Origin: Azorinus chamasolen
Taxonomy: Eukaryota > Mollusca > Bivalvia > Cardiida > Solecurtidae
Direction: 5' to 3'
Assembly: GCA_963576725.1 (NCBI GenBank)
Contig: OY755242.1
Location: 58,882,480 to 58,946,479, forward strand
DNA: 64,000 nt
Under the pieces are notes generated by a model. It was not told the DNA's origin and did no database searches. It saw nothing but the letters and a program-made list of their open reading frames with translations. The stretch's first letter is position 1. Each line of letters begins with the position of its first letter. The position numbers and the translations under genes were made by a program. This document shows, in pieces, positions 3,325-59,486 of this stretch.

Positions 3325-3370
3325 GTAATACTGTAGGCAGAATGCTTCTCTGCTCGACTTTCTCTCTGTA

Positions 3371-3532: not shown

Positions 3533-3664
3533 ACTGCCACCTCGCTATTGATGATAATTTAAAAGTCCAGTTTTGAGAGGTTTTACTGTATATAAAGAAG
3601 GCTCAAAAGAAGGCTCACTTTCGACACCCCTATAGGGACCTCTCTGTGATACCATCGTTCTGTG

Positions 3665-16809: not shown

Positions 16810-16818
16810 CCTATTAGG
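16810..16818. repeat. Left flanking direct repeat CCTATTAGG
   Basis: This 9-bp sequence occurs in the same orientation at 56833-56841, immediately outside the ATGTCCGTGAAG termini, and is the likely target-site duplication. It is almost palindromic, so the boundary is ambiguous: 9 bp if the element starts ATGTCC, 7 bp with GATGTCC, 5 bp with GGATGTCC, 3 bp with AGGATGTCC. Confidence 0.75.
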
Positions 16819-16824
16819 ATGTCC

Positions 16825-16909
16825 GTGAAGTTGGCTACTTGTTCCTTGTTCCCTGTTCGACATTCAATGGATTGTGAATGTTCAATAGCAAACAAGTAGC
16901 TAACTTCAC
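16825..16909. repeat. Left terminal hairpin (85 bp)
   Basis: GTGAAGTTGGCTACTTGTT pairs with AACAAGTAGCTAACTTCAC (one mismatch in 19), and ACATTCA pairs with TGAATGT nearer the centre. It is the only non-array sequence inside the element and its outer arm is a reversed fragment of the array unit. It may preserve the small ancestral hairpin from which the 68-bp unit was amplified (inference). Confidence 0.85.
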
Positions 16910-19439
16910 ACCCCGTTACTTATTCGACTGTTTTCGTTTTTGTGAATAACGAACCGGGAATAAGTAGCTAACTTCACAACCAGTTACTTATTCAATTATA
17001 TTCGTTATTCTGAATAACGAACCGGGAATAAGTAGCTAACTTCACATCCCATTACTTATTCAATTATTTTCGTTATTTTGAATAACGAACCGGGAATAAG
17101 TAGCTAACTTCACATCCCGTTACTTATTCGATTATTTTCGTTTTTGTGAATAACGAACCGGGAATAAGTAGCTAACTTCACATCCCGTTACTTATTCGAT
17201 TATTTTCGTTTTTGTGAATAACGAACCGGGAATAAGTAGCTAACTTCACATCCCGTTACTTATTCGATTATTTTCGTTATTCTGAATAACGAACCGGGAA
17301 TAAGTAGCTAACTTCACATCCCGTTACTTATTCAATTATTTTCATTATTTTGAATAAGGAACCGGGAATAAGTAGCTAACTTCACATCCAGTTACTTATT
17401 CGATTATTTTCCTTTTTGTGAATAACGAACCGGGAATAAGTAGCTAACTTCACATCCCGTTACTTATTCGATATTTTCGTTTTTGTGAATAACGAACCGG
17501 GAATAAGTAGCTAACTTCACATCCCGTTACTTATTCGATTATTTTCGTTTTTGTGAATAACGAACCGGGAATAGGTAGCTAACTTCACATCCAGTTACTT
17601 ATTCGACTATTTTCGTTTTTGTGAATAACGAACCGGGAATAAGTAGCTAACTTCACACCCCGTTACTTATTCGATATTTTCGTTTTTGTGAATAAGGAAC
17701 CGGGAATAAGTAGCTAACTTCACATCCCGTTACTTATTCGATTATTTTCATTATTCTGAATAACGAACCGGGAATAAGTAGCTAACTTCACATCCCGTTA
17801 CTTATTCGATTATTTTCATTATTTTGAATAAGGAACCGGGAATAAGTAGCTAACTTCACATCCCGTTACTTATTCGATTATTTTCATTATTCTGAATAAC
17901 GAACCGGGAATAAGTAGCTAATTTCACATCCCGTTACTTATTCAATTATTTTCATTATTTTGAATAAGGAACCGGGAATAAGTAACTAACTTCACATCCA
18001 GTTACTTATTCGATTATTTTCGTTTTTGTGAATAACGAACCGGGAATAGGTAGCTAACTTCACATCCCGTTACTTATTCGACTATTTTCGTTATTCTGAA
18101 TAAGGAACCGGGAATAAGTAGCTAACTTCACATCCCGTTACTTATTCGACTGTTTTCGTTTTTGTGAATAACGAACCGGGAATAAGTAGCTAACTTCACA
18201 TCCCGTTACTTATTCGATATTTTCGTTTTGTGAATAAGGAACCGGGAATAAGTAGCTAACTTCACATCCCGTTACTTATTCGATTATTTTCATTATTCTG
18301 AATAACGAACCGGGAATAAGTAGCTAACTTCACATCCCGTTACTTATTCAATTATTTTCATTATTTTGAATAAGGAACCGGGAATAAGTAGCTAACTTCA
18401 CATCCAGTTACTTATTCGATTATTTTCGTTTTTGTGAATAACGAACCGGGAATAGGTAGCTAACTTCACATCCCGTTACTTATTCGACTATTTTCGTTAT
18501 TCTGAAAAACGAACCGGGAATAAGTAGCTAACTTCACATCCTGTTACTGATTCAATTATTTTCATTATTTTGAATAAGGAACCGGGAATAAGTAACTAAC
18601 TTCACATCCAGTTACTTATTCGATTATTTTCGATTTTGTGAATAACGAACCGGGAATAAGTAGCTAACTTCACATCCCGTTACTTATTTGATTATTTTTC
18701 GTTATTCTGAATAACGAACCGGGAATAAGTAGCTAACTTCACATCTCGTTACTTATTCAATTATTTTCATTATTTTGAATAAGGAACCGGGAATAAGTAG
18801 CTAACTTCACATCTAGTTACTTATTCGATTATTTTCGTTATTCTGAATAACGAACCGGGAATAAGTAGCTAACTTCACATCCCGTTACTTATTCGATATT
18901 TTCGTTTTTGTGAATAAGGAACCGGGAATAAGTAGCTAACTTCACATCCAGTTACTTATTCGATTATTTTCGTTTTTGTGAATAACGAACCGGGAATAAG
19001 TAGCTAACTTCACGTCCCGTTACTTATTCGATTATATTCATTATTCTGAATAAGGAACCGGGAATAAGTAGCTAACTTCACATCCCGTTACTTATTCAAT
19101 TATTTTCATTATTTTGAATAAGGAACCGGGAATAAGTAGCTAACTTCACATCCAGTTACTTATTCAATTATTTTCGTTTTTGTGAATAACGAACCGGGAA
19201 TAGGTAGCTAACTTCACATCCCGTTACTTATTCGACTATTTTCGTTATTCTGAATAACGAACCGGGAATAAGTAGCTAACTTCACATCCCGTTACTTATT
19301 CGATTATTTTCGTTTTTGTGAATAACAAACCAGGAATAAGTAGCTAACTTCACATCCCGTTACTTATTCGATTATTTTCGTTTTTGTGAATAACGAACCG
19401 GGAATAAGTAGCTAACTTCACATCCCGTTACTTATTCGA

Positions 19440-22400
19440 TTATTTTCGTTATTCTGAATAAGGAACCGGGAATAAGTAGCTAACTTCACATCCAGTTACT
19501 TATTCGATTATTTTCGTTTTTGTGAATAACGAACCGGGAATAGGTAGCTAACTTCACATCCCGTTACTTATTCGATTATTTTCGTTATTCTGAATAACGA
19601 ACCGGGAATAAGTAGCTAACTTCACATCCCGTTACTTATTCGATTATTTTCGTTTTTGTGAATAACGAACCGGGAATAAGTAGCCAACTTCACGTCCCGT
19701 TACTTATTCGATTATTTTCGTTATTCTGAATAACGAACCGGGAATAAGTAGCTAACTTCACATCCCGTTACTTATTCAATTATTTTCGTTAATTTGAATA
19801 ACGAACCGGGAATAAGTAGCTAACTTCACATCCAGTTACTTATTCGATTATTTTCGTTTTTGTGAATAACGAACCGGGAATAAGTAGCTAACTTCACATC
19901 CCGTAACTTATTCGATTATTTTCATTATTCTGAATAACGAACCGGGAATAAGTAGCTAACTTTACATCCCGTTACTTTTTCAATTATTTTCATTATTTTG
20001 AATAAGGAACCGGGAATAAGTAGCTAACTTCACATCCAGTTACTTATTCGATTATTTTCGTTTTTGTGAATAACGAACCGGGAATAGGTAGCTAACTTCA
20101 CATCCCGTTACTTATTCGATAATTTTCGTTTTTGTGAATAAGGAACCGGGAATAAGTAGCTAACTTCACATCCCGTTACTTATTCGATATTTTCGTTTTT
20201 GTGAATAACGAACCGGAAATAAGTAGCTAACTTCACATCCCGTTACTTATTCGATATTTTCGTTTTGTGAATAAGGAACCGGGAATAAGTAGCTAACTTC
20301 ACATCCCGTTACTTATTCGATTATTTTCATTATTCTGAATAACGAACCGGGAATAAGTAGCTAACTTCACATCCCGTTACTTATTCAATTATTTTCATTA
20401 TTTTGAATAAGGAACCGGGAATAAGTAGCTAACTTCACATCCCGTTACTTATTCGATTATTTTCGTTTTTGTGAATAACGAACCGGGAATAGGTAGCTAA
20501 CTTCACATCCCGTTACTTATTCGACTATTTTCGTTATTCTGAAAAACGAACCGGGAATAAGTAGCTAACTTCACATCCTGTTACTTATTCGATTATTTTC
20601 GTTTTTGTGAATAACGAACAGGGAATAAGTAGCTAACATCACGTCCAGTTACTTATTCGATTATTTTCGATTTTGTGAATAACGAACCGGGAATAAGTAG
20701 CTAACTTCACATCCAGTTACTTATTTGATTATTTTTCGTTATTCTGAATAAGGAACCGGGAATAAGTAGCTAACTTCACATCTCGTTACTTATTCAATTA
20801 TTTTCATTATTTTGAATAAGGAACCGGGAATAAGTAGCTAACTTCACATCTAGTTACTTATTCGATTATTTTCGTTTTTGTGAATAACGAACCGGGAATA
20901 AGTAGCTAACTTCACATCAAGTTACTTATTCGATATTTTCGTTTTTGTGAATAAGGAACCGGGAATAAGTAGCTAACTTCACATCCAGTTACTTATTCGA
21001 TTATTTTCGTTTTTGTGAATAACGAACCGGGAATAAGTAGCTAACTTCACGTCCCGTTACTTATTCGATTATTTTCATTATTCTGAATAAGGAACCGGGA
21101 ATAAGTAGCTAACTTCACATCCCGTTACTTATTCAATTATTTTCATTATTTTGAATAAGGAACCGGGAATAAGTAGCTAACTTCACATCCAGTTACTTAT
21201 TCGATTATTTTTGTTTTGTGAATAACGAACCGGGAATAGGTAGCTAACTTCACATCCCGTTACTTATTCGACTATTTTCGTTATTCTGAATAACGAACCG
21301 GGAATAAGTAGCTAACTTCACATCCCGTTACTTATTCGATTATTTTCGTTGTTCTGAATAACGAACCGGGAATAAGTAGCTAACTTCACGTCCAGTTACA
21401 TATTCAATTATTATCGTTAATTTTAATAACGAACCGGGAATAAGTAGCTAACTTCACATCCCGTTACTTATTCGATTATTTTCGCTTTTGTGAATAACGA
21501 ACCGGGAATAAGTAGCTAACTTCACATCCCGTTACTTATTCGATTATTTTCGTTATTCTGAATAACGAACCGGGAATAAGTAGCTAACTTCACATCCCGT
21601 TACTTATTCAATTATTTTCGTTAATTTGAATAACGAACCGGGAATAAGTGGCTAACTTCACATCCAGTTACTTATTCGATTATTTTCGTTTTTGTGAATA
21701 ACGAACCGGGAATAAGTAGCTAACTTCACATCCCGTTACTTATTCGATTATTTTCGTTTTTGTGAATAACAAACCAGGAATAAGTAGCTAACTTCACATC
21801 CCGTTACTTATTCGATTATTTTCGTTTTTGTGAATAACAAACCAGGAATAAGTAGCTAACTTCACATCCCGTTACTTATTCGATTATTTTCGTTTTTGTG
21901 AATAACGAACCGGGAATAAGTAGCTAACTTCACATCCCGTTACTTATTCGATTATTTTCGTTATTCTGAATAAGGAACCGGGAATAAGTAGCTAACTTCA
22001 CATCCAGTTACTTATTCGATTATTTTCGTTTTTGTGAATAACGAACCGGGAATAGGTAGCTAACTTCACATCCCGTTACTTATTCGATTATTTTCGTTAT
22101 TCTGAATAACGAACCGGGAATAAGTAGCTAACTTCACATCCCGTTACTTATTCGATTATTTTCGTTTTTGTGAATAACGAACCGGGAATAAGTAGCCAAC
22201 TTCACGTCCCGTTACTTATTCGATTATTTTCGTTATTCTGAATAACGAACCGGGAATAAGTAGCTAACTTCACATCCCGTTACTTATTCAATTATTTTCG
22301 TTAATTTGAATAACGAACCGGGAATAAGTAGCTAACTTCACATCCAGTTACTTATTCGATTATTTTCGTTTTTGTGAATAACGAACCGGGAATAAGTAGC

Positions 22401-25400
22401 TAACTTCACATCCCGTTACTTATTCGATTATTTTCATTATTCTGAATAACGAACCGGGAATAAGTAGCTAACTTTACATCCCGTTACTTTTTCAATTATT
22501 TTCATTATTTTGAATAAGGAACCGGGAATAAGTAGCTAACTTCACATCCAGTTACTTATTCGATTATTTTCGTTTTTGTGAATAACGAACCGGGAATAGG
22601 TAGCTAACTTCACATCCCGTTACTTATTCGATAATTTTCGTTTTTGTGAATAAGGAACCGGGAATAAGTAGCTAACTTCACATCCCGTTACTTATTCGAT
22701 ATTTTCGTTTTTGTGAATAACGAACCGGAAATAAGTAGCTAACTTCACATCCCGTTACTTATTCGATATTTTCGTTTTGTGAATAAGGAACCGGGAATAA
22801 GTAGCTAACTTCACATCCCGTTACTTATTCGATTATTTTCATTATTCTGAATAACGAACCGGGAATAAGTAGCTAACTTCACATCCCGTTACTTATTCAA
22901 TTATTTTCATTATTTTGAATAAGGAACCGGGAATAAGTAGCTAACTTCACATCCCGTTACTTATTCGATTATTTTCGTTTTTGTGAATAACGAACCGGGA
23001 ATAGGTAGCTAACTTCACATCCCGTTACTTATTCGACTATTTTCGTTATTCTGAAAAACGAACCGGGAATAAGTAGCTAACTTCACATCCTGTTACTTAT
23101 TCGATTATTTTCGTTTTTGTGAATAACGAACAGGGAATAAGTAGCTAACATCACGTCCAGTTACTTATTCGATTATTTTCGATTTTGTGAATAACGAACC
23201 GGGAATAAGTAGCTAACTTCACATCCAGTTACTTATTTGATTATTTTTCGTTATTCTGAATAAGGAACCGGGAATAAGTAGCTAACTTCACATCTCGTTA
23301 CTTATTCAATTATTTTCATTATTTTGAATAAGGAACCGGGAATAAGTAGCTAACTTCACATCTAGTTACTTATTCGATTATTTTCGTTTTTGTGAATAAC
23401 GAACCGGGAATAAGTAGCTAACTTCACATCAAGTTACTTATTCGATATTTTCGTTTTTGTGAATAAGGAACCGGGAATAAGTAGCTAACTTCACATCCAG
23501 TTACTTATTCGATTATTTTCGTTTTTGTGAATAACGAACCGGGAATAAGTAGCTAACTTCACGTCCCGTTACTTATTCGATTATTTTCATTATTCTGAAT
23601 AAGGAACCGGGAATAAGTAGCTAACTTCACATCCCGTTACTTATTCAATTATTTTCATTATTTTGAATAAGGAACCGGGAATAAGTAGCTAACTTCACAT
23701 CCAGTTACTTATTCGATTATTTTTGTTTTTGTGAATAACGAACCGGGAATAGGTAGCTAACTTCACATCCCGTTACTTATTCGACTATTTTCGTTATTCT
23801 GAATAACGAACCGGGAATAAGTAGCTAACTTCACATCCCGTTACTTATTCGATTATTTTCGTTGTTCTGAATAACGAACCGGGAATAAGTAGCTAACTTC
23901 ACGTCCAGTTACATATTCAATTATTTTCGTTAATTTTAATAACGAACCGGGAATAAGTAGCTAACTTCACATCCCGTTACTTATTCGATTATTTTCGCTT
24001 TTGTGAATAACGAACCGGGAATAAGTAGCTAACTTCACATCCCGTTACTTATTCGATTATTTTCGTTATTCTGAATAACGAACCGGGAATAAGTAGCTAA
24101 CTTCACATCCCGTTACTTATTCAATTATTTTCGTTAATTTGAATAACGAACCGGGAATAAGTAGCTAACTTCACATCCAGTTACTTATTCGATTATTTTC
24201 GTTTTTGTGAATAACGAACCGGGAATAGGTAGCTAACTTCACATCCCGTTACTTATTCGATTATTTTCGTTATTCTGAATAACGAACCGGGAATAAGTAG
24301 CTAACTTCACATCCCGTTACTTATTCGATTATTTTCGTTTTTGTGAATAACGAACCGGGAATAAGTAGCCAACTTCACGTCCAGTTACTTATTCGATTAT
24401 TTTCGTTTTTGTGAATAACGAACCGGGAATAAGTAGCTAACTTCACATCCCGTTACTTATTCGATTATTTTCGTTATTCTGAATAACGAACCGGGAATAA
24501 GTAGCTAACTTCACATCCCGTTACTTATTCAATTATTTTCGTTAATTTGAATAACGAACCGGGAATAAGTAGCTAGCTTCACATCCAGTAACTTATTCGA
24601 TTATTTTCGTTTTTGTGAATAACGAACCGGGAATAAGTAGCTAACTTCACATCCCGTTACTTATTCGATTATTTTCATTATTCTGAATAACGAACCGGGA
24701 ATAAGTAGCTAACTTTACATCCCGTTACTTTTTCAATTATTTTCATTATTTTGAATAAGGAACCGGGAATAAGTAGCTAACTTCACATCCAGTTACTTAT
24801 TCGATTATTTTCGTTTTTGTGAATAACGAACCGGGAATAGGTAGCTAACTTCACATCCCGTTACTTATTCGATTATTTTCGTTTTTGTGAATAAGGAACC
24901 GGGAATAAGTAGCTAACTTCACATCCCGTTACTTATTCGATATTTTCGTTTTTGTGAATAACGAACCGGGAATAAGTAGCTAACTTCACATCCCGTTACT
25001 TATTCGATATTTTCGTTTTGTGAATAAGGAACCGGGAATAAGTAGCTAACTTCACATCCCGTTACTTATTCGATTATTTTCATTATTCTGAATAACGAAC
25101 CGGGAATAAGTAGCTAACTTCACATCCCGTTACTTATTCAATTATTTTCATTATTTTGAATAAGGAACCGGGAATAAGTAGCTAACTTCACATCCAGTTA
25201 CTTATTCGATTATTTTCGTTTTTGTGAATAACGAACCGGGAATAGGTAGCTAACTTCACATCCCGTTACTTATTCGACTATTTTCGTTATTCTGAAAAAC
25301 GAACCGGGAATAAGTAGCTAACTTCACATCCTGTTACTTATTCGATTATTTTCGTTTTTGTGAATAACGAACAGGGAATAAGTAGCTAACATCACGTCCA

Positions 25401-28400
25401 GTTACTTATTCGATTATTTTCGATTTTGTGAATAACGAACCGGGAATAAGTAGCTAACTTCACATCCCGTTACTTATTTGATTATTTTTCATTATTCTGA
25501 ATAAGGAACCGGGAATAAGTAGCTAACTTCACATCTCGTTACTTATTCAATTATTTTCATTATTTTGAATAAGGAACCGGGAATAAGTAGCTAACTTCAC
25601 ATCTAGTTACTTATTCGATTATTTTCGTTTTTGTGAATAACGAACCGGGAATAAGTAGCTAACTTCACATCCCGTTACTTATTCGATATTTTCGTTTTTG
25701 TGAATAAGGAACCGGGAATAAGTAGCTAACTTCACATCCAGTTACTTATTCGATTATTTTCGTTTTTGTGAATAACGAACCGGGAATAAGTAGCTAACTT
25801 CACGTCCCGTTACTTATTCGATTATTTTCATTATTCTGAATAAGGAACCGGGAATAAGTAGCTAACTTCACATCCCGTTACTTATTCAATTATTTTCATT
25901 ATTTTGAATAAGGAACCGGGAATAAGTAGCTAACTTCACATCCAGTTACTTATTCGATTATTTTCGTTTTTGTGAATAACGAACCGGGAATAGGTAGCTA
26001 ACTTCACATCCCGTTACTTATTCGACTATTTTCGTTATTCTGAATAACGAACCGGGAATAAGTAGCTAACTTCACATCCAGTTACTTATTCGATTATTTT
26101 CGTTGTTCTGAATAACGAACCGGGAATAAGTAGCTAACTTCACGTCCAGTTACATATTCAATTATTTTCGTTAATTTTAATAACGAACCGGGAATAAGTA
26201 GCTAACTTCACATCCCGTTACTTATTCGATTATTTTCGCTTTTGTGAATAACGAACCGGGAATAAGTAGCTAACTTCACATCCCGTTACTTATTCGATTA
26301 TTTTCGTTATTCTGAATAACGAACCGGGAATAAGTAGCTAACTTCACATCCCGTTACTTATTCAATTATTTTCGTTAATTTGAATAACGAACCGGGAATA
26401 AGTGGCTAACTTCACATCCAGTTACTTATTCGATTATTTTCGTTTTTGTGAATAACGAACCGGGAATAAGTAGCTAACTTCACATCCCGTTACTTATTCG
26501 ATTATTTTCGTTTTTGTGAATAACAAACCAGGAATAAGTAGCTAACTTCACATCCCGTTACTTATTCGATTATTTTCGTTTTTGTGAATAACGAACCGGG
26601 AATAAGTAGCTAACTTCACATCCTGTTACTTATTCGATTATTTTCGTTATTCTGAATAAGGAACCGGGAATAAGTAGCTAACTTCACATCCAGTTACTTA
26701 TTCGATTATTTTCGTTTTTGTGAATAACGAACCGGGAATAGGTAGCTAACTTCACATCCCGTTACTTATTCGATTATTTTCGTTATTCTGAATAACGAAC
26801 CGGGAATAAGTAGCTAACTTCACATCCCGTTACTTATTCGATTATTTTCGTTTTTGTGAATAACGAACCGGGAATAAGTAGCCAACTTCACGTCCAGTTA
26901 CTTATTCGATTATTTTCGTTTTTGTGAATAACGAACCGGGAATAAGTAGCTAACTTCACATCCCGTTACTTATTCGATTATTTTCGTTATTCTGAATAAC
27001 GAACCGGGAATAAGTAGCTAACTTCACATCCCGTTACTTATTCAATTATTTTCGTTAATTTGAATAACGAACCGGGAATAAGTAGCTAACTTCACATCCA
27101 GTTACTTATTCGATTATTTTCGTTTTTGTGAATAACGAACCGGGAATAAGTAGCTAACTTCACATCCCGTTACTTATTCGATTATTTTCATTATTCTGAA
27201 TAACGAACCGGGAATAAGTAGCTAACTTTACATCCCGTTACTTTTTCAATTATTTTCATTATTTTGAATAAGGAACCGGGAATAAGTAGCTAACTTCACA
27301 TCCAGTTACTTATTCGATTATTTTCGTTTTTGTGAATAACGAACCGGGAATAGGTAGCTAACTTCACATCCCGTTACTTATTCGATTATTTTCGTTTTTG
27401 TGAATAAGGAACCGGGAATAAGTAGCTAACTTCACATCCCGTTACTTATTCGATATTTTCGTTTTTGTGAATAACGAACCGGGAATAAGTAGCTAACTTC
27501 ACATCCCGTTACTTATTCGATTATTTTCATTATTCTGAATAACGAACCGGGAATAAGTAGCTAACTTTACATCCCGTTACTTTTTCAATTATTTTCATTA
27601 TTTTGAATAAGGAACCGGGAATAAGTAGCTAACTTCACATCCAGTTACTTATTCGATTATTTTCGTTTTTGTGAATAACGAACCGGGAATAGGTAGCTAA
27701 CTTCACATCCCGTTACTTATTCGATTATTTTCGTTTTTGTGAATAAGGAACCGGGAATAAGTAGCTAACTTCACATCCCGTTACTTATTCGATATTTTCG
27801 TTTTTGTGAATAACGAACCGGGAATAAGTAGCTAACTTCACATCCCGTTACTTATTCGATATTTTCGTTTTGTGAATAAGGAACCGGGAATAAGTAGCTA
27901 ACTTCACATCCCGTTACTTATTCGATTATTTTCATTATTCTGAATAACGAACCGGGAATAAGTAGCTAACTTCACATCCCGTTACTTATTCAATTATTTT
28001 CATTATTTTGAATAAGGAACCGGGAATAAGTAGCTAACTTCACATCCAGTTACTTATTCGATTATTTTCGTTTTTGTGAATAACGAACCGGGAATAGGTA
28101 GCTAACTTCACATCCCGTTACTTATTCGACTATTTTCGTTATTCTGAAAACCGAACCGGGAATAAGTAGCTAACTTCACATCCTGTTACTTATTCGATTA
28201 TTTTCGTTTTTGTGAATAACGAACAGGGAATAAGTAGCTAACATCACGTCCAGTTACTTATTCGATTATTTTCGATTTTGTGAATAACGAACCGGGAATA
28301 AGTAGCTAACTTCACATCCCGTTACTTATTTGATTATTTTTCATTATTCTGAATAAGGAACCGGGAATAAGTAGCTAACTTCACATCTCGTTACTTATTC

Positions 28401-43400: not shown

Positions 43401-46400
43401 AATAAGTAGCTAACTTCACATCCCGTTACTTATTCGATATTTTCGTTTTTGTGAATAAGGAACCGGGAATAAGTAGCTAACTTCACATCCAGTTACTTAT
43501 TCGATTATTTTCGTTTTTGTGAATAACGAACCGGGAATAAGTAGCTAACTTCACGTCCCGTTACTTATTCGATTATTTTCATTATTCTGAATAAGGAACC
43601 GGGAATAAGTAGCTAACTTCACATCCCGTTACTTATTCAATTATTTTCATTATTTTGAATAAGGAACCGGGAATAAGTAGCTAACTTCACATCCAGTTAC
43701 TTATTCGATTATTTTCGTTTTTGTGAATAACGAACCGGGAATAGGTAGCTAACTTCACATCCCGTTACTTATTCGACTATTTTCGTTATTCTGAATAACG
43801 AACCGGGAATAAGTAGCTAACTTCACATCCCGTTACTTATTCGATTATTTTCGTTGTTCTGAATAACGAACCGGGAATAAGTAGCTAACTTCACGTCCAG
43901 TTACATATTCAATTATTTTCGTTAATTTTAATAACGAACCGGGAATAAGTAGCTAACTTCACATCCCGTTACTTATTCGATTATTTTCGCTTTTGTGAAT
44001 AACGAACCGGGAATAAGTAGCTAACTTCACATCCCGTTACTTATTCGATTATTTTCGTTAATTTGAATAACGAACCGGGAATAAGTGGCTAACTTCACAT
44101 CCAGTTACTTATTCGATTATTTTCGTTTTTGTGAATAACGAACCGGGAATAAGTAGCTAACTTCACATCCCGTTACTTATTCGATTATTTTCGTTTTTGT
44201 GAATAACGAACCGGGAATAGGTAGGTAACTTCACATCCCGTTACTTATTCGACTATTTTCGTTATTCTGAATAACGAACCGGGAATAAGTAGCTAACTTC
44301 ACATCCCGTTACTTATTCGATTATTTTCGTTTTTGTGAATAACGAACCGAGAATAAGTAGCCAAATTCACGTCCAGTTACTTATTCGATTATTTTCGTTT
44401 TTGTGAATAACGAACCGGGAATAAGTAGCTAACTTCACATCCCGTTACTTATTCGATTATTTTCGTTATTCTGAATAACGAACCGGGAATAAGTAGCTAA
44501 CTTCACATCCCGTTACTTATTCAATTATTTTCGTTAATTTGAATAACGAACCGGGAATAAGTAGCTAACTTCACATCCAGTTACTTATTCGATTATTTTC
44601 GTTGTTCTGAATAACGAACCGGGAATAAGTAGCTAACTTCACGTCCAGTTACATATTCAATTATTTTCGTTAATTTTAATAACGAACCGGGAATAAGTAG
44701 CTAACTTCACATCCCGTTACTTATTCGATTATTTTCGCTTTTGTGAATAACGAACCGGGAATAAGTAGCTAACTTCACATCCCGTTACTTATTCGATTAT
44801 TTTCGTTAATTTGAATAACGAACCGGGAATAAGTGGCTAACTTCACATCCAGTTACTTATTCGATTATTTTCGTTTTTGTGAATAACGAACCGGGAATAA
44901 GTAGCTAACTTCACATCCCGTTACTTATTCGATTATTTTCGTTTTTGTGAATAACGAACCGGGAATAGGTAGGTAACTTCACATCCCGTTACTTATTCGA
45001 CTATTTTCGTTATTCTGAATAACGAACCGGGAATAAGTAGCTAACTTCACATCCCGTTACTTATTCGATTATTTTCGTTTTTGTGAATAACGAACCGAGA
45101 ATAAGTAGCCAAATTCACGTCCAGTTACTTATTCGATTATTTTCGTTTTTGTGAATAACGAACCGGGAATAAGTAGCTAACTTCACATCCCGTTACTTAT
45201 TCGATTATTTTCGTTATTCTGAATAACGAACCGGGAATAAGTAGCTAACTTCACATCCCGTTACTTATTCAATTATTTTCGTTAATTTGAATAACGAACC
45301 GGGAATAAGTAGCTAACTTCACATCCAGTTACTTATTCGATTATTTTCGTTTTTGTGAATAACGAACCGGGAATAGGTAGCTAACTTCACATCCCGTTAC
45401 TTATTCGACTATTTTCGTTATTCTGAATAACGAACCGGGAATAGGTAGCTAACTTTACATCCCGTTACTTTTTCAATTATTTTCATTATTTTGAATAAGG
45501 AACCGGGAATAAGTAGCTAATTTCACATCCCGTTACTTATTCAATTATTTTCATTATTTTGAATAAGGAACCGGGAATAAGTAACTAACTTCACATCCAG
45601 TTACTTATTCGATTATTTTCGTTTTTGTGAATAACGAACCGGGAATAGGTAGCTAACTTCACATCCCGTTACTTATTCGACTATTTTCGTTATTCTGAAT
45701 AAGGAACCGGGAATAAGTAGCTAACTTCACATCCAGTTACTTATTCGATTATTTTCGTTTTTGTGAATAACGAACCGGGAATAAGTAGCTAACTTCACAT
45801 CCCGTTACTTATTCGATATTTTCGTTTTTGTGAATAACGAACCGGGAATAAGTAGCTAACTTCACATCCCGTTACTTATTCGATATTTTCGTTTTGTGAA
45901 TAAGGAACCGGGAATAAGTAGCTAACTTCACATCCCGTTACTTATTCGATTATTTTCATTATTCTGAATAACGAACCGGGAATAAGTAGCTAACTTCACA
46001 TCCCGTTACTTATTCAATTATTTTCATTATTTTGAATAAGGAACCGGGAATAAGTAGCTAACTTCACATCCAGTTACTTATTCGATTATTTTCGTTTTTG
46101 TGAATAACGAACCGGGAATAGGTAGCTAACTTCACATCCCGTTACTTATTCGACTATTTTCGTTATTCTGAAAAACGAACCGGGAATAAGTAGCTAACTT
46201 CACATCCCGTTACTTATTCGATTATTTTCGTTTTTGTGAATAACGAACCGGGAATAAGTAGCTAACATCACATCCAGTTACTTATTCGATTATTTTCGCT
46301 TTTGTGAATAACGAACCGGGAATAAGTAGCTAACTTCACATCCAGTTACTTATTCGATTATTTTCGTTATTCTGAATAACGAACCGGGAATAAGTAGCTA

Positions 46401-48300
46401 ACTTCACATCTCGTTACTTATTCAATTATTTTCATTATTTTGAATAAGGAACCGGGAATAAGTAGCTAACTTCACATCCAGTTACTTATTCGATTATTTT
46501 CGTTTTTGTGAATAACGAACCGGGAATAAGTAGCTAACTTCACATCCCGTTACTTATTCGATATTTTCTTTTTTGTGAATAAGGAACCGGGAATAAGAAG
46601 CTAACTTCACATCCCGTTACTTATTCGATTATTTTCGTTTTTGTGAATAACGAACCGGGAATAAGTAGTTAACTTCACGTCCCGTTACTTATTCGATTAT
46701 TTTCATTATTCTGAATAAGGAACCGGGAATAAGTAGCTAATTTCACATCCCGTTACTTATTCAATTATTTTCATTATTTTGAATAAGGAACCGGGAATAA
46801 GTAGCTAACTTCACATCCAGTTACTTATTCGATTATTTTCGTTTTTGTGAATAACGAACCGGGAATAGGTAGCTAACTTCACATCCCGTTACTTATTCGA
46901 TTATTTTCGTTTTTGTGAATAAGGAACCGGGAATAAGTAGCTAACTTCACATCCCGTTACTTATTCGATTATTTTCATTATTCTGAATAACGAACCGGGA
47001 ATAAGTAGCTAACTTCACATCCCGTTACTTATTCAATTATTTTCATTATTTTGAATAAGGAACCGGGAATAAGTAGCTAATTTCACATCCCGTTACTTAT
47101 TCAATTATTTTCATTATTTTGAATAAGGAACCGGGAATAAGTAACTAACTTCACATCCAGTTACTTATTCGATTATTTTCGTTTTTGTGAATAACGAACC
47201 GGGAATAGGTAGCTAACTTCACATCCCGTTACTTATTCGATTATTTTCGTTTTTGTGAATAAGGAACCGGGAATAAGTAGCTAACTTCACATCCCGTTAC
47301 TTATTCGATTATTTTCATTATTCTGAATAACGAACCGGGAATAAGTAGCTAACTTCACATCCCGTTACTTATTCGATATTTTCGTTTTTGTGAATAACGA
47401 ACCGGGAATAAGTAGCTAACTTCACATCCCGTTACTTATTCGATTATTTTCGTTTTTGTGAATAAGGAACCGGGAATAAGTAGCTAACTTCACATCCCGT
47501 TACTTATTCGATTATTTTCATTATTCTGAATAACGAACCGGGAATAAGTAGCTAACTTCACATCCCGTTACTTATTCAATTATTTTCATTATTTTGAATA
47601 AGGAACCGGGAATAAGTAGCTAACTTCACATCCAGTTACTTATTCGATTATTTTCGTTTTTGTGAATAACGAACCGGGAATAGGTAGCTAACTTCACATC
47701 CCGTTACTTATTCGACTATTTTCGTTATTCTGAAAAACGAACCGGGAATAAGTAGCTAACTTCACATCCCGTTACTTATTCGATTATTTTCGTTTTTGTG
47801 AATAACGAACCGGGAATAAGTAGCTAACTTCACATCCCGTTACTTATTCGATATTTTCTTTTTTGTGAATAAGGAACCGGGAATAAGAAGCTAACTTCAC
47901 ATCCCGTTACTTATTCGATTATTTTCGTTTTTGTGAATAACGAACCGGGAATAAGTAGCTAACTTCACGTCCCGTTACTTATTCGATTATTTTCATTATT
48001 CTGAATAAGGAACCGGGAATAAGTAGCTAATTTCACATCCCGTTACTTATTCAATTATTTTCATTATTTTGAATAAGGAACCGGGAATAAGTAGCTAACT
48101 TCACATCCAGTTACTTATTCGATTATTTTCGTTTTTGTGAATAACGAACCGGGAATAGGTAGCTAACTTCACATCCCGTTACTTATTCGACTATTTTCGT
48201 TATTCTGAATAACGAACCGGGAATAAGTAGCTAACTTCACATCCCGTTACTTATTCGATTATTTTCGTTGTTCTGAATAACGAACCGGGAATAAGTAGCT
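19440..48300 (+). repeat. Higher-order repeats of the left arm (2.2-3.7 kb)
   Basis: The rare variant GTTGTTCTGAATAACG occurs at 21348, 23861, 26102, 28954, 32144, 40200, 43853, 44601 and 48267. Spacings of 2513, 2241, 2852, 3190, 3653, 748 and 3666 bp are close to 37, 33, 42, 47, 54, 11 and 54 units. A second marker, GAACAGGGAATAAGTAGC, gives 20617, 23129, 25371 and 28225 with matching spacing. Variant order is preserved between neighbouring blocks, so multi-kilobase segments were duplicated by unequal exchange or replication slippage. Confidence 0.85.
35757..36427 (-). mobile_element. 671-bp retroelement copy inserted in the satellite
   Basis: This segment corresponds base for base to 6463-7133 with no gap and two mismatches (A/G near 35839, A/C near 36416), about 99.7% identity. 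The array reads CATTATTCTGAA before it and TAACGAACCGGG after it, which is exactly the uninterrupted sister unit (for example near 34870), so no array base was lost and no target duplication of useful length is seen. The shared 3' edge on the minus strand and different 5' edges favour 5'-truncated retrotransposition. Copying of the flank locus during break repair is the alternative. It occurs once, so it arrived after the last block duplications. Confidence 0.9.
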
Positions 48301-48671
48301 AACTTCACGTCCAGTTACATATTCAATTATTTTCGTTAATTTTAATAACGAACCGGGAATAAGTAGCTAACTTCACATCCCGTTACTTATTCGATTATTT
48401 TCGCTTTTGTGAATAACGAACCGGGAATAAGTAGGTAACTTCACATCCCGTTACTTATTCGATTATTTTCGTTATTCTGAATAAGGAACCGGGAATAAGT
48501 AGCTAACTTCACATCCCGTTACTTATTCAATTATTTTCGTTAATTTGAATAACGATCCGGGAATAAGTGGCTAACTTCACATCCAGTTACTTATTCGATT
48601 ATTTTCGTTTTTGTGAATAACGAACCGGGAATAAGTAGCTAACTTCACATCCCGTTACTTATTCGATTATT

Positions 48672-48681
48672 TTCGTTATTC
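48672..48681. repeat. Arm-inversion junction TTCGTTATTC
   Basis: Left-arm sequence GATTATTTTCGTTATTC passes directly into right-arm sequence CGTTATTCACAAAAACG. The ten bases TTCGTTATTC belong to both orientations, because many units contain the perfect dyad TTCGTTATTC-T-GAATAACGAA. The switch therefore occurs inside the unit's own palindrome, with no spacer or loop. Confidence 0.88.
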
Positions 48682-50749
48682 ACAAAAACGAAAAATAATT
48701 GAATAAGTAACGGGGTGTGAAGTTAGCTACTTATTCCCGGTTCGTTATTCAGAATAACGAAAATAATCGAATAAGTAACGGGATGTGAAGTTAGCTACTT
48801 ATTCCCGGTTCGTTATTGACAAAAACGAACATAATCGAATAAGTAACTGGACGTGAAGTTAGCTACTTATTCCCGGTTCCTTATTCACAAAAACGAAAAT
48901 ATCGAATAAGTAACGGGATGTGAAGTTAGCTACTTATTCCCGGTTCGTTATTCAAAATAATGAAAATAATTGAATAAGTAACGGGATGTGAAGTTAGCTG
49001 CTTATTCCCGGTTCGTTATTCACAAAAACGAAAATAATCGAATATGTAACGGGACGTGAAGTTAGCTACTTATTCCCTGTTCGTTATTCAGAATAACGAA
49101 AATAATTGAATTAGTAACGGGATGTGAAGTTAGCTACTTATTCCCGGTTCGTTATTCACAAAAACGAACATAATCGAATAAGTAACTGGATGTGAAGTTA
49201 GCTACTTATTCCCGGTTCGTTATTCAAAATAATGAAAATAATCGAATAAGTAACGGGATGTGAAGTTAGCTACTTATTCCCGGTTCGTTATTCAGAATAA
49301 TGAAAATAATCGAATAAGTAACGGGACGTGCAGTTAGCTACTTATTCCCGGTTCGTTATTCAGAATAACGAAAATAATCGAATAAGTAACGGGATGTGAA
49401 GTTAGCTACTTATTTCCGGTTCGTTATTCACAAAAACGAAAATAATTGAATAAGTAACGGGATGTGAAGTTAGCTACTTATTCCCGCTTCGTTATTCAGA
49501 ATAACGAAAATAATCGAATTAGTAACGGGATGTGAAGTTACCTACTTATTCCCGGTTCGTTATTCACAAAAACGAACATAATCGAATAAGTAACTGGATG
49601 TGAAGTTAGCTACTTATTCCCGGTTCGTTATTCAAAATAACGAAAATAATTGAATAAGTAACTGGATGTGAAGTTAGCTACTTATTCCCGGTTCGTTATT
49701 CGGAACAACGAAAATAATCGAATAAGTAACGGGATGTGAAGTTAGCTACTTATTCCCTTTTCCTTATTCAAAATAACGAAAAATAATCGAATAAGTAACG
49801 GGATGTGAAGTTAGCTACTTATTCCCGGTTCGTTATTCACAAAAACGAAAATAATCGAATAAGTAACTGGATGTGAAGTCAGCTACTTATTCCCGGTTCG
49901 TTATTCACAAAAACGAAAATAATCGAATAAGTAACTGGATGTGAAGTTAGCTACTTATTCCCGGTTCCTTATTCACAAAAACGAAAATATCGAATAAGTA
50001 ACGGGATGTGAAGTTAGCTACTTATTCCCGGTTCGTTATTCAAAATAACAAAAATAATCGAATAAGTAACGGGATGTGAAGTTAGCTGCTTATTCCCGGT
50101 TCGTTATTCAGAATAACGAAAATAGTCGAATAAGTAACGGGATGTGAAGTTAGCTACCTATTCCCGGTTCGTTATTCACAAAAACGAAAATAATCGAATA
50201 AGTAACTGGATGTGAAGTTAGCTACTTATTCCCGGTTCCTTATTCAAAATAATGAAAATAATTGAATAAGTAACGGGATGTGAAGTTAGCTACTTATTCC
50301 CGGTTCGTTATTCAGAATAATGAAAATAATCGAATAAGTAACGGGACGTGCAGTTAGCTACTTATTCCCTGTTCGTTATTCAGAATAACGAAAATAATCG
50401 AATAAGTAACGGGATGTGAAGTTAGCTACTTATTCCCGATTCGTTATTCACAAAAACGAAAAATAATTGAATAAGTAACGGGATGTGAAGTTAGCTACTT
50501 ATTCCCGGTTCGTTATTCACAAAAACGAATATAATCGAATAAGTAACGGGATGTGAAGTTAGCTACTTATTCCCGGTTCCTTATTCACAAAAACGAAAAT
50601 AATTGAATAAGTAACGGGATGTGAAGTTAGCTACTTATTTCCGGTTCGTTATTCACAAAAACGAAAATAATCGAATAAGTAACGGGATGTGAAGTTAGCT
50701 ACTTATTCCCGGTTCGTTATTCACAAAAAACGAATATAATCGAATAAGT

Positions 50750-53700
50750 AACTGGACTTGAAGTTAGCTACTTATTCCCGGTTCGTTATTCGGAACAACG
50801 AAAATAATCGAATAAGTAACGGGATGTGAAGTTAGCTACTTATTCCCGGTTCGTTATTCAGAATAACGAAAATAATCGAATAAGTAACGGGATGTGAAGT
50901 TAGCTAATTATTCCCGGTTCGTTATTCACAAAAACGAACATAATCGAATAAGTAACTGGACGTGAAGTTAGCTACTTATTCCCGGTTCGTTATTCAAAAT
51001 AACGAAAATAATTGAATAAGTAACGGGATGTGAAGTTAGCTACTTATTCCAGTTCGTTATTCACAAAAACGAAAATAATCGAATAAGTAACTGGGTGTGA
51101 AGTTAGCTACTTATTCCCGGTTCGTTATTCACAAAAACGAAAATAATCGAATAAGTAACTGGACGTGAAGTTAGCTACTTATTCCCGGTTCCTTATTCAC
51201 AAAAACGAAAATATCGAATAAGTAACGGGATGTGAAGTTAGCTACTTATTCCCGGTTCGTTATTCACAATAACGAAAATAATCGAATAAGTAACGGGATG
51301 TGAAGTTAGCTGCTTATTCCCGGTTCGTTATTCAGAATAACGAAAATAATCGAATAAGTAACGGGATGTGAAGTTAGCTACCTATTCCCGGTTCGTTATT
51401 CACTAAAACGAAAATAATCGAATAAGTAACTGGATGTGAAGTTAGCTACTTATACCCGGTTCCTTATTCAAAATAATGAAAATAATTGAATAAGTAACGG
51501 ATGTGAAGTTAGCTACTTATTCCCGGTTCGTTATTCAGAATAATGAAAATAATCGAATAAGTAACTGGACGTGAAGTTAGCTACTTATTCCCTATTCGTT
51601 ATTCAGAATAACGAAAATAATCGAATAAGTAACGGGATGTGAAGTTAGCTACTTATTCCCGGTTCGTTATTCACAAAAACGAAAAATAATTGAATAAGTA
51701 ACGGGATGTGAAGTTAGCTACTTATTCCCGGTTCGTTATTCACAAAAACGAAAACAATCGAATAAGTAACGGGATGTGAAATTAGCTACTTATTCCCGGT
51801 TCCTTATTCACAAAAACGAAAATAATTGAATAAGTAACGGGATGTGAAGTTAGCTACTTATTTCCGGTTCGTTATTCAGAACAACGAAAATAATCGAATA
51901 AGTAACGGGATGTGAAGTTAGCTACTTATTCCCGGTTCGTTATTCACAAAAAAACGAACATAATCGAATAAGTAACTGGACTTGAAGTTAGCTACTTATT
52001 CCCGGTTCGTTAATCGGAACAACGAAAATAATCGAATAAGTAACGGGATGTGAAGTTAGCTACTTATTCCCGGTTCGTAATTCAGAATAACGAAAATAAT
52101 CGAATAAGTAACGGGATGTGAAGTTAGCTACTTATTCCCGGTTCGTTATTCACAAAAACGAACATAATCGAATAAGTAACTGGACGTGAAGTTAGCTACT
52201 TATTCCCGGTTCGTTATTCAAAATAACGAAAATAATTGAATAAGTAACGGGATGTGAAGTTAGCTACTTATTCCAGTTCGTTATTCACAAAAACGAAAAT
52301 AATCGAATAAGTAACTGGGTGTGAAGTTAGCTACTTATTCCCGGTTCGTTATTCACAAAAACGAAAATAATCGAATAAGTAACTGGACGTGAAGTTAGCT
52401 ACTTATTCCCGGTTCCTTATTCACAAAAACGAAAATATCGAATAAGTAACGGGATGTGAAGTTAGCTACTTATTCCCGGTTCGTTATTCACAATAACGAA
52501 AATAATCGAATAAGTAACGGGATGTGAAGTTAGCTGCTTATTCCCGGTTCGTTATTCAGAATAACGAAAATAATCGAATAAGTAACGGGATGTGAAGTTA
52601 GCTACCTATTCCCGGTTCGTTATTCACAAAAACGAAAATAATCGAATAAGTAACTGGATGTGAAGTTAGCTACTTATACCCGGTTCCTTATTCAAAATAA
52701 TGAAAATAATTGAATAAGTAACGGGATGTGAAGTTAGCTACTTATTCCCGGTTCGTTATTCAGAATAATGAAAATAATCGAATAAGTAACTGGACGTGAA
52801 GTTAGCTACTTATTCCCTATTCGTTATTCAGAATAACGAAAATAATCGAATAAGTAACGGGATGTGAAGTTAGCTACTTATTCCCGGTTCGTTATTCACA
52901 AAAACGAAAAATAATTGAATAAGTAACGGGATGTGAAGTTAGCTACTTATTCCCGGTTCGTTATTCACAAAAACGAAAATAATCGATTAAGTAACGGGAT
53001 GTGAAGTTAGCTACTTATTCCCGGTTCCTTATTCACAAAAACGAAAATAATTGAATAAGTAACGGGATGTGAAGTTAGCTACTTATTCCCGGTTCGTTAT
53101 TCAGAATAACGAAAATAATCGAATAAGTAACGGGATGTGAAGTTAGCTACTTATTCCCGGTTCGTTATTCACAAAAAACGAACATAATCGAATAAGTAAC
53201 TGGACTTGAAGTTAGCTACTTATTCCCGGTTCGTTATTCGGAACAACGAAAATAATCGAATAAGTAACGGGATGTGAAGTTAGCTACCTATTCCCGGTTC
53301 GTTATTCACAAAAACGAAAATAATCGAATAAGTAACTGGATGTGAAGTTAGCTACTTATTCCCGGTTCCTTATTCAAAATAATGAAAATAATTGAATAAG
53401 TAACGGGATGTGAAGTTAGCTACTTATTCCCGGTTCGTTATTCAGAATAATGAAAATAATCGAATAAGTACCGGGACGTGAAGTTAGCAACTTATTCCCG
53501 GTTCGTTATTCACAAAACGAAAATAATCGAATAAGTAACGGGATATGAAGTTAGCTACTTATTCCCGGTTCCTTATTCACAAAAACGAAAATATCGAATA
53601 AGTAACGGGATGTGAAGTTAGCTACTTATTCCCGGTTCCTTATTCAAAATAATGAAAATAATTGAATAAGTAACGGGATGTGAAGTTAGCTACATATTCC

Positions 53701-55250
53701 CGGTTCGTTATTCAGAATAACGAAAATAATCGAATAAGTAACGGGATGTGAAGTTAGCTACTTATTCCCGGTTCGTTATTCACAAAAACGAAAATTAATT
53801 GTATAAGTAACGGGATGTGAAGTTAGCTACTTATTCCCGGTTCGTTATTCACAAAAACGAAAATAATCGAATAAGTAACTGGATGTGAAGTTAGCTACTT
53901 ATTCCCGGTTCGTTATTCACAAAAACGAAAATAATTGAATAAGTAACGGGATGTGAAGTTAGCTACTTATTCCCGGTTCGTTATTCAGAATAACGAAAAT
54001 AATCGAATAAGTAACGGGATGTGAAGTTAGCTACTTATTCCCGGTTCGTTATTCACAAAAACGAACATAATCGAATAAGTAACTGGATGTGAAGTTAGCT
54101 ACTTATTCCCGGTTCGTTATTCAAAATAACGAAAATAATTGAATAAGTAACGGGATGTGAAGTTAGCTACTTATTCCCGGTTCGTTATTCTGAAGAACGA
54201 AAATAATCGAATAAGTAACGGGATGTGAAGTTAGCTACTTATTCCCGGTTCCTTATTCAAAATAACGAAAAATAATTGAATAAGTAACGGGATGTGAAGT
54301 TAGCTACTTATTCCCGGTTCGTTATTCACAAAAACGAAAATAATCGAATAAGTAACTGGATGTGAAGTTAGCTACTTATTCCCGGTTCGTTATTCACAAA
54401 AACGAAAATAATCGAATAAGTAACTGGACGTGAAGTTAGCTACTTATTCCCGGTTCCTTATTCACAAAAACGAAAATATCGAATAAGTAACGGGATGTGA
54501 AGTTAGCTACTTATTCCCGGTTCGTTATTCAAAATAACGAAAATAATCGAATAAGTAACGGGATGTGAAGTTAGCTGCTTATTCCCGGTTCGTTATTCAG
54601 AATAACGAAAATAGTCGAATAAGTAACGGGATGTGAAGTTAGCTACCTATTCCCGGTTCGTTATTCACAAAAACGAAAATAATCGAATAAGTAACAGGAT
54701 GTGAAGTTAGCTACTTATTCCCGGTTCCTTATTCAAAATAATGAAAATAATTGAATAAGTAACGGGATGTGAAGTTAGCTACTTATTCCCGGTTCGTTAT
54801 TCAGAATAATGAAAATAATCGAATAAGTAACTGGACGTGAAGTTAGCTACTTATTCCCTGTTCGTTATTCAGAATAACGAAAATAATCGAATAAGTAACG
54901 GGATGTGAAGTTAGCTACTTATTCCCGGTTCGTTATTCACAAAAACGAAAAATAATTGAATAAGTAACGGGATGTGAAGTTAGCTACTTATTCCCGGTTC
55001 GTTATTCACAAAAACGAAAATAATCGAATAAGTAACGGGATGTGAAGTTAGCTACTTATTCCCGGTTCCTTATTCACAAAAACGAAAATAATTGAATAAG
55101 TAACGGGATGTGAAGTTAGCTACTTATTCCCGGTTCGTTATTCAGAATAACGAAAATAATCGAATAAGTAACGGGATGTGAAGTTAGCTACTTATTCCCG
55201 GTTCGTTATTCACAAAAAACGAACATAATCGAATAAGTAACTGGACTTGA
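50750..55250 (-). repeat. 1,224-bp higher-order repeat of the right arm
   Basis: GGACTTGAAGTTAGC occurs at 50754, 51978 and 53202, exactly 1,224 bp (18 units) apart, and again at 55243 (2,041 bp, 30 units). The truncated TACTTATTCCAGTTCG at 51041 and 52265 gives the same 1,224-bp step. This period is not seen in the left arm. Confidence 0.85.
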
Positions 55251-56741
55251 AGTTAGCTACTTATTCCCGGTTCGTTATTCGGAACAACGAAAATAATCGA
55301 ATAAGTAACGGGATGTGAAGTTAGCTACTTATTCCCGGTTCGTTATTCAGAATAACGAAAATAATCGAATAAGTAACGGGACGTGAAGTTAGCTACTTAT
55401 TCCCGGTTCGTTATTCACAAAAACGAACATAATCGAATAAGTAACTGGACGTGAAGTTAGCTACTTATTCCCGGTTCGTTATTCAAAATAACGAAAATAA
55501 TTGAATAAGTAACGGGATGTGAAGTTAGCTACTTATTCCCGGTTCGTTATTCGGAACAACGAAAATAATCGAATAAGTAACGGGATGTGAAGTTAGCTAC
55601 TTATTCCCGGTTCGTTATTCAAAATAACGAAAAATAATTGAATAAGTAACGGGATGTGAAGTTAGCTACTTATTCCCGGTTCGTTATTCACAAAAACGAA
55701 AATAATCGAATAAGTAACTGGATGTGAAGTTAGCTACTTATTCCCGGTTCCTTATTCACAAAAACGAAAATAATCGAATATGTAACTGGACGTGAAGTTA
55801 GCTACTTATTCCCGGTTCCTTATTCAGAATAACGAAAATATCGAATAAGTAACGGGATGTGAAGTTAGCTACTTATTCCCGGTTCGTTATTCAAAATAAC
55901 GAAAATAATCGAATAAGTAACGGGATGTGAAGTTAGCTGCTTATTCCCGGTTCGTTATTCAGAATAACGAAAATAGTCGAATAAGTAACGGGATGTGAAG
56001 TTAGCTACCTATTCCCGGTTCGTTATTCACAAAAACGAAAATAATCGAATAAGTAACTGGATGTGAAGTTAGCTACTTATTCCCGGTTCCTTATTCAAAA
56101 TAATGAAAATTATTGAATAAGTAACGGGATGTGAAGTTAGCTACTTATTCCCGGTTCGTTATTCAGAATAATGAAAATAATCGAATAAGTAACGGGATGT
56201 GAAGTTAGCTACTTATTCCCGGTTCGTTATTCACAAAAACGAAAATAATCGAATAAGTAACGGGATGTGAAGTTAGCTACTTATTCCCGGTTCCTTATTC
56301 ACAAAAACGAAAATATCGAATAAGTAACGGGATGTGAAGTTAGCTACTTATTCCCGGTTCGTTATTCAAAATAATGAAAATAATTGAATAAGTAACGGGA
56401 TGTGAAGTTAGCTACTTATTCCCGGTTCGTTGTTCAGAATAACGAAAATAATCGAATAAGTAACGGGATGTGAAGTTAGCTACTTTTTCCCGGTTCGTTA
56501 TTCACAAAAACGAAAATAATCGAATAAGTAACTGGATGTGAAGTTAGCTACTTATTCCCGGTTCCTTATTCAAAATAACGAAAATAATTGAATAAGTAAC
56601 GGGATGTGAAGTTAGCTACTTATTCCCGGTTCGTTATTCAGAATAACGAATATAATTGAATAAGTAACTGGGTGTGAAGTTAGCTACTTATTCCCGGTTC
56701 GTTATTCACAAAAACGAAAACAGTCGAATAAGTAACGGGGT

Positions 56742-56826
56742 GTGAAGTTAGCTACTTGTTTGCTATTGGACATTCACAATCCATTGAATGTCGAACTGGG
56801 AACAAGGAACAAGTAGCCAACTTCAC
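56742..56826. repeat. Right terminal hairpin (85 bp)
   Basis: The reverse complement of 16825-16909, with differences such as CCCAGTTCG for CCCTGTTCG and GTCCAAT for GTTCAAT. GTGAAGTTAGCTACTTGTT pairs with AACAAGTAGCCAACTTCAC. It marks the outer end of the right arm. Confidence 0.87.
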
Positions 56827-56832
56827 GGACAT

Positions 56833-56841
56833 CCTATTAGG
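56833..56841. repeat. Right flanking direct repeat CCTATTAGG
   Basis: Identical to 16810-16818 in the same orientation and immediately beyond GGACAT. It is the partner of the proposed target-site duplication. Confidence 0.75.
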
Positions 56842-59362: not shown

Positions 59363-59486
59363 CTAAACCTACCCTGCGCTCAGTTAATATTAACTAAACC
59401 TACCCTGCGCTCAGTTAATATAAACTAAACATACCCTGCGCTCAGTTAATATTAACTAAACCTGCCCTGCGCTCAGTTAATATTAA
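59363..59486. repeat. 31-bp minisatellite, four copies
   Basis: Unit starts at 59363, 59394, 59425 and 59456. Each unit has CTAAACCTACCCTGCGCTCA followed by GTTAATATTAA, whose end is the perfect dyad TTAATATTAA. Only three substitutions were noted among the four copies. Confidence 0.93.

What the first reader, a model, noticed from the sequence alone, without database searches (positions are those of the whole stretch)
16810..56841. A 40-kb foldback-type element made almost wholly of a 68-bp satellite
Seen: matching inverted ends (ATGTCCGTGAAG...), a single orientation switch, matching terminal hairpins, collinear order of unit variants at both tips, and a CCTATTAGG direct repeat outside. Known: foldback transposons have long inverted arms of short tandem repeats, and FB/Mutator-like elements make 9-bp duplications. 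Inferred: a short hairpin element inserted, then its arms expanded to about 31.9 and 8.2 kb. This joins two things usually treated separately, a satellite array and a single transposon insertion, at a size far beyond ordinary foldbacks.
Basis: partly seen in the sequence, partly recalled or inferred. Interest (0 to 1): 0.92.

Follow-up and report, generated by a model that had tools for sequence, protein, structure and literature searches.

The report
Giant mobile element with satellite arms
A 40,000-letter stretch made of about 580 copies of one 68-letter repeat is flanked by the nine-letter duplication that marks an insertion and is the largest of ten measured members of a scattered repeat family in the same genome; its arms likely grow and shrink by gaining or losing blocks of repeats, and it is predicted to be moved by an enzyme made elsewhere.

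Summary
Confirmed: window 16819-56832 is a 40,014-bp element of two head-to-head arms of a 68-bp unit (457 and 119 counted units), hairpin caps, one orientation switch and a 9-bp duplication. The own genome shows a family. Ten tip pairs span 10.7-40.0 kb; the 9-bp duplications match exactly in 9 of 9 readable pairs, each target different. One relative's target, a 59-bp minisatellite, closes up in phase when the element and one duplication copy are left out. Elsewhere the arms flank a ~5.2-kb middle without long reading frames, seen in 21 of 21 other elements examined and absent here. Sister copies without matching 1-kb flanks share long arms: L020/L021 align 68 units with 13 differences, differ by blocks of 3 and 13 units, and their middles are 99.96% identical. 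So long arms travel and change by whole blocks; this replaces 'short hairpin inserted, then expanded'. The window copy is a middle-less, giant-armed derivative. Foldbacks seeding satellites are known (Tetris); the size, whole-element resolution and sisters sharing long arms are new to the papers I found. The transposase was not found; its search did not complete.

The parts
16810..16818 (.). left copy of the 9-bp target-site duplication CCTATTAGG
   Evidence: exact second copy at 56833; 9 of 9 readable family pairs, this one included, have exact 9-bp duplications
16819..16893 (+). left cap (T form): element end ATGTCC plus an inverted, diverged piece of the satellite unit; forms a hairpin with the first unit
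   Evidence: (27-bp stretch matching the reverse unit, 0 of 2000 shuffles scored as high)
16894..48671 (+). left arm, 457 counted tandem 68-bp units with block duplications, commonest lags 37, 42, 54 and 70 units
35757..36427 (-). nested 671-bp copy of a dispersed repeat (retroelement-like, inferred), 669/671 identical to window 6463-7133; strand is that of the reading frame in the flank copy
48672..48681 (.). orientation switch: TTCGTTATTC, 10 bp shared by a forward unit and a reversed unit; no middle domain
   Evidence: no window hit to the middle domain
48682..56757 (-). right arm, 119 counted tandem 68-bp units in reverse orientation
56758..56832 (-). right cap (A form)
56833..56841 (.). 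right copy of the target-site duplication CCTATTAGG

Best explanation
It is a giant foldback-type transposon, a copy of a family in the same genome whose inverted arms are 68-bp satellite arrays, and it is predicted to be moved in trans by a cut-and-paste transposase that acts on the hairpin-capped ends and makes a 9-bp target duplication. Shown: the exact 9-bp duplications, the shared caps, the conserved middle of other copies, and sister copies without matching flanks that share long arms. Shown: between three sister pairs, arms differ by whole blocks of 1 to 20 units while the middles differ by 0.04-0.3%. Inferred: blocks are gained and lost by unequal exchange or slippage inside an arm, so arm length is a fast, continuing variable and not a one-off expansion. 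Inferred: the window copy lost the middle, and the arm parts next to it, by a deletion joining oppositely oriented units at a 10-bp match (TTCGTTATTC). Inferred: each unit carries a version of the end motif and so may offer extra transposase-binding sites.
For: Exact 9-bp duplications in 9 of 9 readable pairs, different targets; the tenth pair is masked on one side. An in-place empty site: the joined flanks of C3:77986839 restore 4.0 in-phase copies of a 59-bp minisatellite, 75% match at shift 59 against 36% or less at the other shifts from 40 to 74. Two end forms (T or A at element position 36): 9 of 10 paired elements, the window's included, carry one of each (the C12 pair is T/T). Middle found in 21 of 21 other elements examined, 97-99.8% identical to the reference in most, one copy (L025) diverged; no ORF above 132 aa in four copies read, no Pfam match passing its cut-off in 10 ORFs scanned. 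Sister arms: L020/L021 68 units, 13 differences, blocks of 3 and 13; L023/L026 one 7-unit block; L015/L019 blocks of 1, 7, 20 and 4 units; no match between the 1-kb flanks of these sisters. In the window 279 of 457 left-arm units lie in exact runs of 5 or more units that recur in the arm, 14 of 119 in the right. The arms share 10 unit types out of 105 and 69.
Against: No transposase or autonomous copy was found; the search for a MULE transposase did not complete. The 40 tips are the best of 1,038 first-look candidates for a left-tip query, so sizes and similarity are not a census. The window's own empty allele was not seen, nor any reads. Against full independence of the two arms: 34 of 119 right-arm units have an exact copy in the left arm, and 54 of 119 are equally near both arms. 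The conserved-motif test was not decisive: the unit stretch shared with the cap has the lowest (tied) diversity of the 16-bp windows, but 17 of 68 windows have fewer variant types.
Confidence: 0.85

Rival explanations
1. A short foldback inserted here and all of the array growth took place afterwards at this site.
For: The two window arms share few unit types (10 of 105 and 69) and have private variants, so each arm changed largely on its own; recent block copies are present. A block 6-11 units from the right tip recurs in the left arm (19 windows).
Against: Other elements have long arms and a middle, and sister copies share arms of up to 68 units. The window's tips are no closer to each other than to other elements' tips, and blocks of the right arm also match other elements.
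Confidence: 0.2
2. A pre-existing satellite array was captured between two mobile ends, or the arrays spread by recombination rather than transposition.
For: The unit itself resembles an inverted piece of the cap, so array and ends share sequence.
Against: 9 of 9 exact 9-bp duplications at different targets, a T end and an A end in 9 of 10 elements, and the same middle in 21 of 21 others examined.
Confidence: 0.04
3. The switch or the size is an assembly artefact.
For: No reads were examined; the window copy is the only one of 22 examined without a middle.
Against: No 1,500-bp stretch recurs exactly; both ends run into non-satellite flank with a matching duplication; other elements of 29.6-34.3 kb exist.
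Confidence: 0.06

Closest known systems
Tetris foldback of Drosophila virilis (PMC4079207; abstract, Results part 1 of 2, long-range section and Discussion part 1 of 2 read)
   Same: Foldback with tandem repeats in the inverted ends, 8-10-bp duplications, an outer domain sharing a 37-bp stretch with the repeat, repeats expanding into satellite-like arrays, no transposase found
   Different: Tetris inverted ends reach 1,735 bp and its arrays 66 copies of about 220 bp, long arrays between two outer domains being seen by fibre-FISH; here duplication-flanked elements of 10.7-40 kb are bounded in sequence and long arms are shared by copies at different sites
Galileo and its two-TIR derivatives (PMC3573991 passages; PMC3688188 abstract and outline)
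   Same: Inverted ends with internal tandem repeats that vary independently; copies reduced to two arms; transposase-binding sites in the repeats
   Different: P superfamily, 7-bp duplications, inverted ends up to about 1.26 kb
Tm1 Mutator/foldback family of root-knot nematodes (PMC3169594 passages, abstract passage included)
   Same: 8-10-bp, most commonly 9-bp, duplications; arms of variable numbers of short tandem repeats
   Different: about 14-bp unit and asymmetric 7-bp terminal motifs; a transposase resembling the Phantom subclass of Mutator is known there
Satellite-carrying Helentrons and MITEs, reported among others in bivalves (PMC12628747 passages; search listings)
   Same: Mobile elements that carry satellite-like arrays
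   Different: Helitron/Helentron arrays lie in the central region, and these elements make no duplication (the latter recalled); here the arrays are the inverted arms

Membership tests
Foldback-type transposon (structural class) | long inverted arms built of short tandem repeats | tested here: met
   window; other elements, and samples
Foldback-type transposon (structural class) | target-site duplication at independent insertions | tested here: met
   9 of 9 readable pairs, 9 bp; in-place empty site at one
Foldback-type transposon (structural class) | middle domain of variable presence and size | tested here: met
   ~5.2 kb in copies read through, shortened and inverted in L023/L026, absent in the window
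Mutator superfamily (MULE) | duplication of about 9 bp (papers; wider range recalled) | tested here: met
   not exclusive to this superfamily
Mutator superfamily (MULE) | MULE transposase in an autonomous partner with the same ends | not tested
   search of the own genome for PF10551 unanswered
P superfamily (Galileo) | 7-bp duplication (8 bp for other P elements, recalled) | tested here: not met
   9 bp in 9 of 9
Helitron/Helentron | no target duplication, no terminal inverted repeats (recalled) | tested here: not met
Satellite DNA | long head-to-tail arrays of one unit with block copies | tested here: met

The most novel reading that the evidence does not exclude
A satellite that moves: cut-and-paste transposition carries whole satellite arrays, tens of kilobases long, as the arms of one element, and the arrays are rewritten in blocks between jumps so quickly that sister copies 99.96% identical in the middle already differ in arm length.
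Probability: 0.6. Interest if true: 0.85.

Novelty: new variant of a known kind. Interest (0 to 1): 0.75.

Why it matters
How satellites disperse and how transposons give rise to them is usually argued from fragments. Here whole arrays sit between exact target duplications, with a conserved middle that can serve as a clock, so the step size and pace of array change can be measured against point mutation, copy by copy. The window's longest arm (31.9 kb) is about 18 times the longest inverted end reported for Tetris (1,735 bp), which raises the question of how a transposase could pair ends up to 40 kb apart.

Tried and rejected
Rejected: a TA-duplication (Tc1/mariner) reading of the palindromic CCTATTAGG; the 9 readable pairs fix the duplication at 9 bp with varied targets. 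Rejected: arms made by recent foldback copying at the centre; no mirror order there. Rejected: tip collinearity, and a block six to eleven units from the right tip, as proof of a short founder at this site; other elements' arms show similar tip and block matches. Rejected: a nearby repair patch as the source of the 671-bp insert; the same repeat sits in another element's arm (L013). Inconclusive: extra conservation of the unit segment shared with the cap. Led nowhere: Rfam (no match), viral and prokaryote collections (no exact match to the pattern), tRNA scan, Pfam on the nested repeat (none passing its cut-off), the Drosophila virilis paper PMC12910113 (only a reference to Tetris), the Donax MITE paper (not held).

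Searches behind the statement that no such giant foldback resolved in sequence was seen in print: (open-licence library only; listings capped).

Full report
What is there. Window 16819-56832 (40,014 bp) consists of a left cap, a left arm of 68-bp units in + orientation, a single switch, a right arm of the same unit in - orientation, and a right cap, bounded by CCTATTAGG on both sides. I counted 457 and 119 units of normal length. The only large break in the arms is a 671-bp insert at 35757-36427, 669/671 identical to window 6463-7133. The same repeat also sits in the arm of another element (L013, 98.9% over 815 bp). A reading frame in the flank copy has 427 protein relatives at E up to 0.001; one of the 120 listed bears a precomputed PF26215, which my own Pfam scan of it did not return. 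I read it as a truncated retroelement-like repeat (inference; Pfam gave nothing for the frame itself).

Anatomy of the end. The element starts ATGTCC and its cap contains GTGAAGTTGGCTACTTGTTCC..., part of a 27-bp stretch that matches the reverse of the satellite unit (0 of 2,000 shuffles scored as high). Cap plus first unit folds into a long hairpin at both ends. The satellite unit therefore shares sequence with the transposon end, in inverted orientation.

The family. The whole-genome search was answered once: the genome has 1.72 Gb in 137 contigs, and the tip query had 1,038 first-look candidates of which 40 were scored; the 40 are full tips of 98-100% identity, the rest of the listing being shorter unit matches near them. 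Ten facing pairs span 10.7, 11.9, 12.6, 13.3, 17.0, 19.3, 29.6, 31.2, 34.3 and 40.0 kb. The 9 bp outside the two ends are identical in 9 of 9 readable pairs and differ between pairs; the tenth is masked on one side beyond two letters, and those two match. With the 20 tips left unpaired this makes 29 other places in the listing. The element at C3:77986839 (19.3 kb) sits in a 59-bp minisatellite: joining its flanks with one TGGGCGAGC gives 4.0 copies without indels, with 75% match at shift 59 across the junction and at most 36% at any other shift from 40 to 74. That is an empty site in place. The nine other joined flanks gave no spanning match in the fetched sequence.

Two ends. The caps come in two forms, T or A at element position 36. 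Nine of ten paired elements have one of each, the window's too (left T, right A); the C12 element is T/T. The scored tips are mostly T because the query was a T tip.

The middle. In other elements the arms do not meet. They flank a ~5.2-kb domain (3.56 + 1.68 kb), 97-99.8% identical to the reference in most copies (L025 is diverged), with no ORF above 132 aa in four copies read and no Pfam match passing its cut-off in the 10 ORFs scanned. I found it in 21 of 21 other elements examined: 19 fetched at 9 kb (the C18 and C11 ones through samples) and two more by samples. In L012, L023 and L026 it is inverted relative to the T cap, against 14 arms read directly in the usual orientation, as expected if inverted arms recombine (inference). 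The window has no match to it. The window's switch falls in TTCGTTATTC, 10 bp present in forward and reversed units, so the copy looks like a deletion derivative reduced to its arms (inference).

Arms change by blocks and travel. Among 20 arms read to 9 kb, unit numbers run from 15 to 117 and beyond the stretch read; my arithmetic puts two T arms at about 17 and 23 kb. Four pairs of arms at different sites share unit order from the tip, and none of these four pairs has matching 1-kb flanks. L020 and L021 align 68 units with 13 point differences and differ by blocks of 3 and 13 units, while their middles differ at 1 of 2,473 positions; L023 and L026 differ by one block of 7 units (middle 99.83%; the 97.4% over 5,489 bp runs on into the far arm); L015 and L019 by blocks of 1, 7, 20 and 4 units (middle 99.7%); L011 and L017 are more distant, 98.5%. 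So these arms were already tens of units long when the copies parted, and blocks account for far more changed sequence than point changes. The window's own left arm shows the same: 279 of 457 units lie in exact runs of at least five units that recur in the arm, with lags of 37, 42, 54 and 70 units commonest; the right arm shows 14 of 119. The two arms share only 10 unit types of 105 and 69; 58 of 119 right-arm units are nearest to their own arm, 54 tie and 7 are nearer the left arm. No mirror order exists at the centre. They have evolved largely apart.

The insertion, the ends, the switch and the 9-bp duplication stand. The tip collinearity is weak evidence: it beats 99.95% of other offsets but only 92.7% without the first two units, and the window's two tips rank each other 17th and 16th of 21 arms (the other 20 long arms are all T-form). 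A short hairpin that expanded in place is not needed, and in the sister pairs arm length is older than single insertions; for the window copy itself the share is unknown.

Mechanism, with status. Insertion by a transposase with a 9-bp stagger: strongly supported by duplications and an empty site. Trans mobilisation: inferred from the lack of long reading frames. Block change by unequal exchange or slippage: block change shown, route inferred. Loss of the middle by deletion at a 10-bp match: inferred. Satellite units as extra transposase-binding sites: suggested by the shared motif here and by Galileo (abstract), untested; the conservation test was not decisive.

Compared with what is known. 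Tetris already joins foldback and satellite, with inverted ends up to 1,735 bp, arrays up to 66 copies of about 220 bp, and long arrays between two outer domains seen by fibre-FISH. Tm1 shows 9-bp duplications and variable repeat arms with a Mutator-type transposase. Galileo shows two-arm derivatives and independent arm change up to about 1.26 kb. What differs here is scale (10.7-40 kb per element), bounded elements in sequence, and sister copies that show long arms being inherited and then changed by blocks. It is a new variant of a known kind; superfamily membership stays open.

Noticed in passing
window 3160-3225, 3911-3985, 6033-6106, 9366-9433, 10512-10586, 60818-60869, 61653-61730: Short near-perfect palindromic repeats of two recurring kinds (GCAAACAGAGCAGACCC..., and ...CCATTGTGATAAATAGAGCATTTGCTCC...) that look like MITE families; the first kind also turns up in flanks of other elements.
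   Followed up: no
window 6463-7133 and 35757-36427; L013 about 2975-3789: A retroelement-like repeat in the flank, again in the window's arm and in another element's arm, 98.9-99.7% alike.
   Followed up: partly
window 389-658, 1539-1941, 7841-8297, 59363-59488: Four small tandem arrays of 45, 83, 31 and 31 bp, not the 68-bp unit.
   Followed up: no
G000:C18:53130500-53141780 (L061-L064): Four of four samples inside the 31.2-kb element are neither satellite nor middle, so a nested insert of perhaps 11 kb or more may lie in its T arm.
   Followed up: no
L012, L023, L026: The middle domain is inverted relative to the T cap in these three, while 14 other arms read directly have the usual orientation; suggests flips by recombination between inverted arms.
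   Followed up: partly
L025 6851-9000: A diverged version of the middle (pieces about 79-98% identical) behind an 84-unit arm, possibly an older subfamily with the same cap.
   Followed up: no
L016/L017 (C12 element): The only paired element of ten with two T-form caps, perhaps by conversion between ends; its right flank is masked.
   Followed up: no
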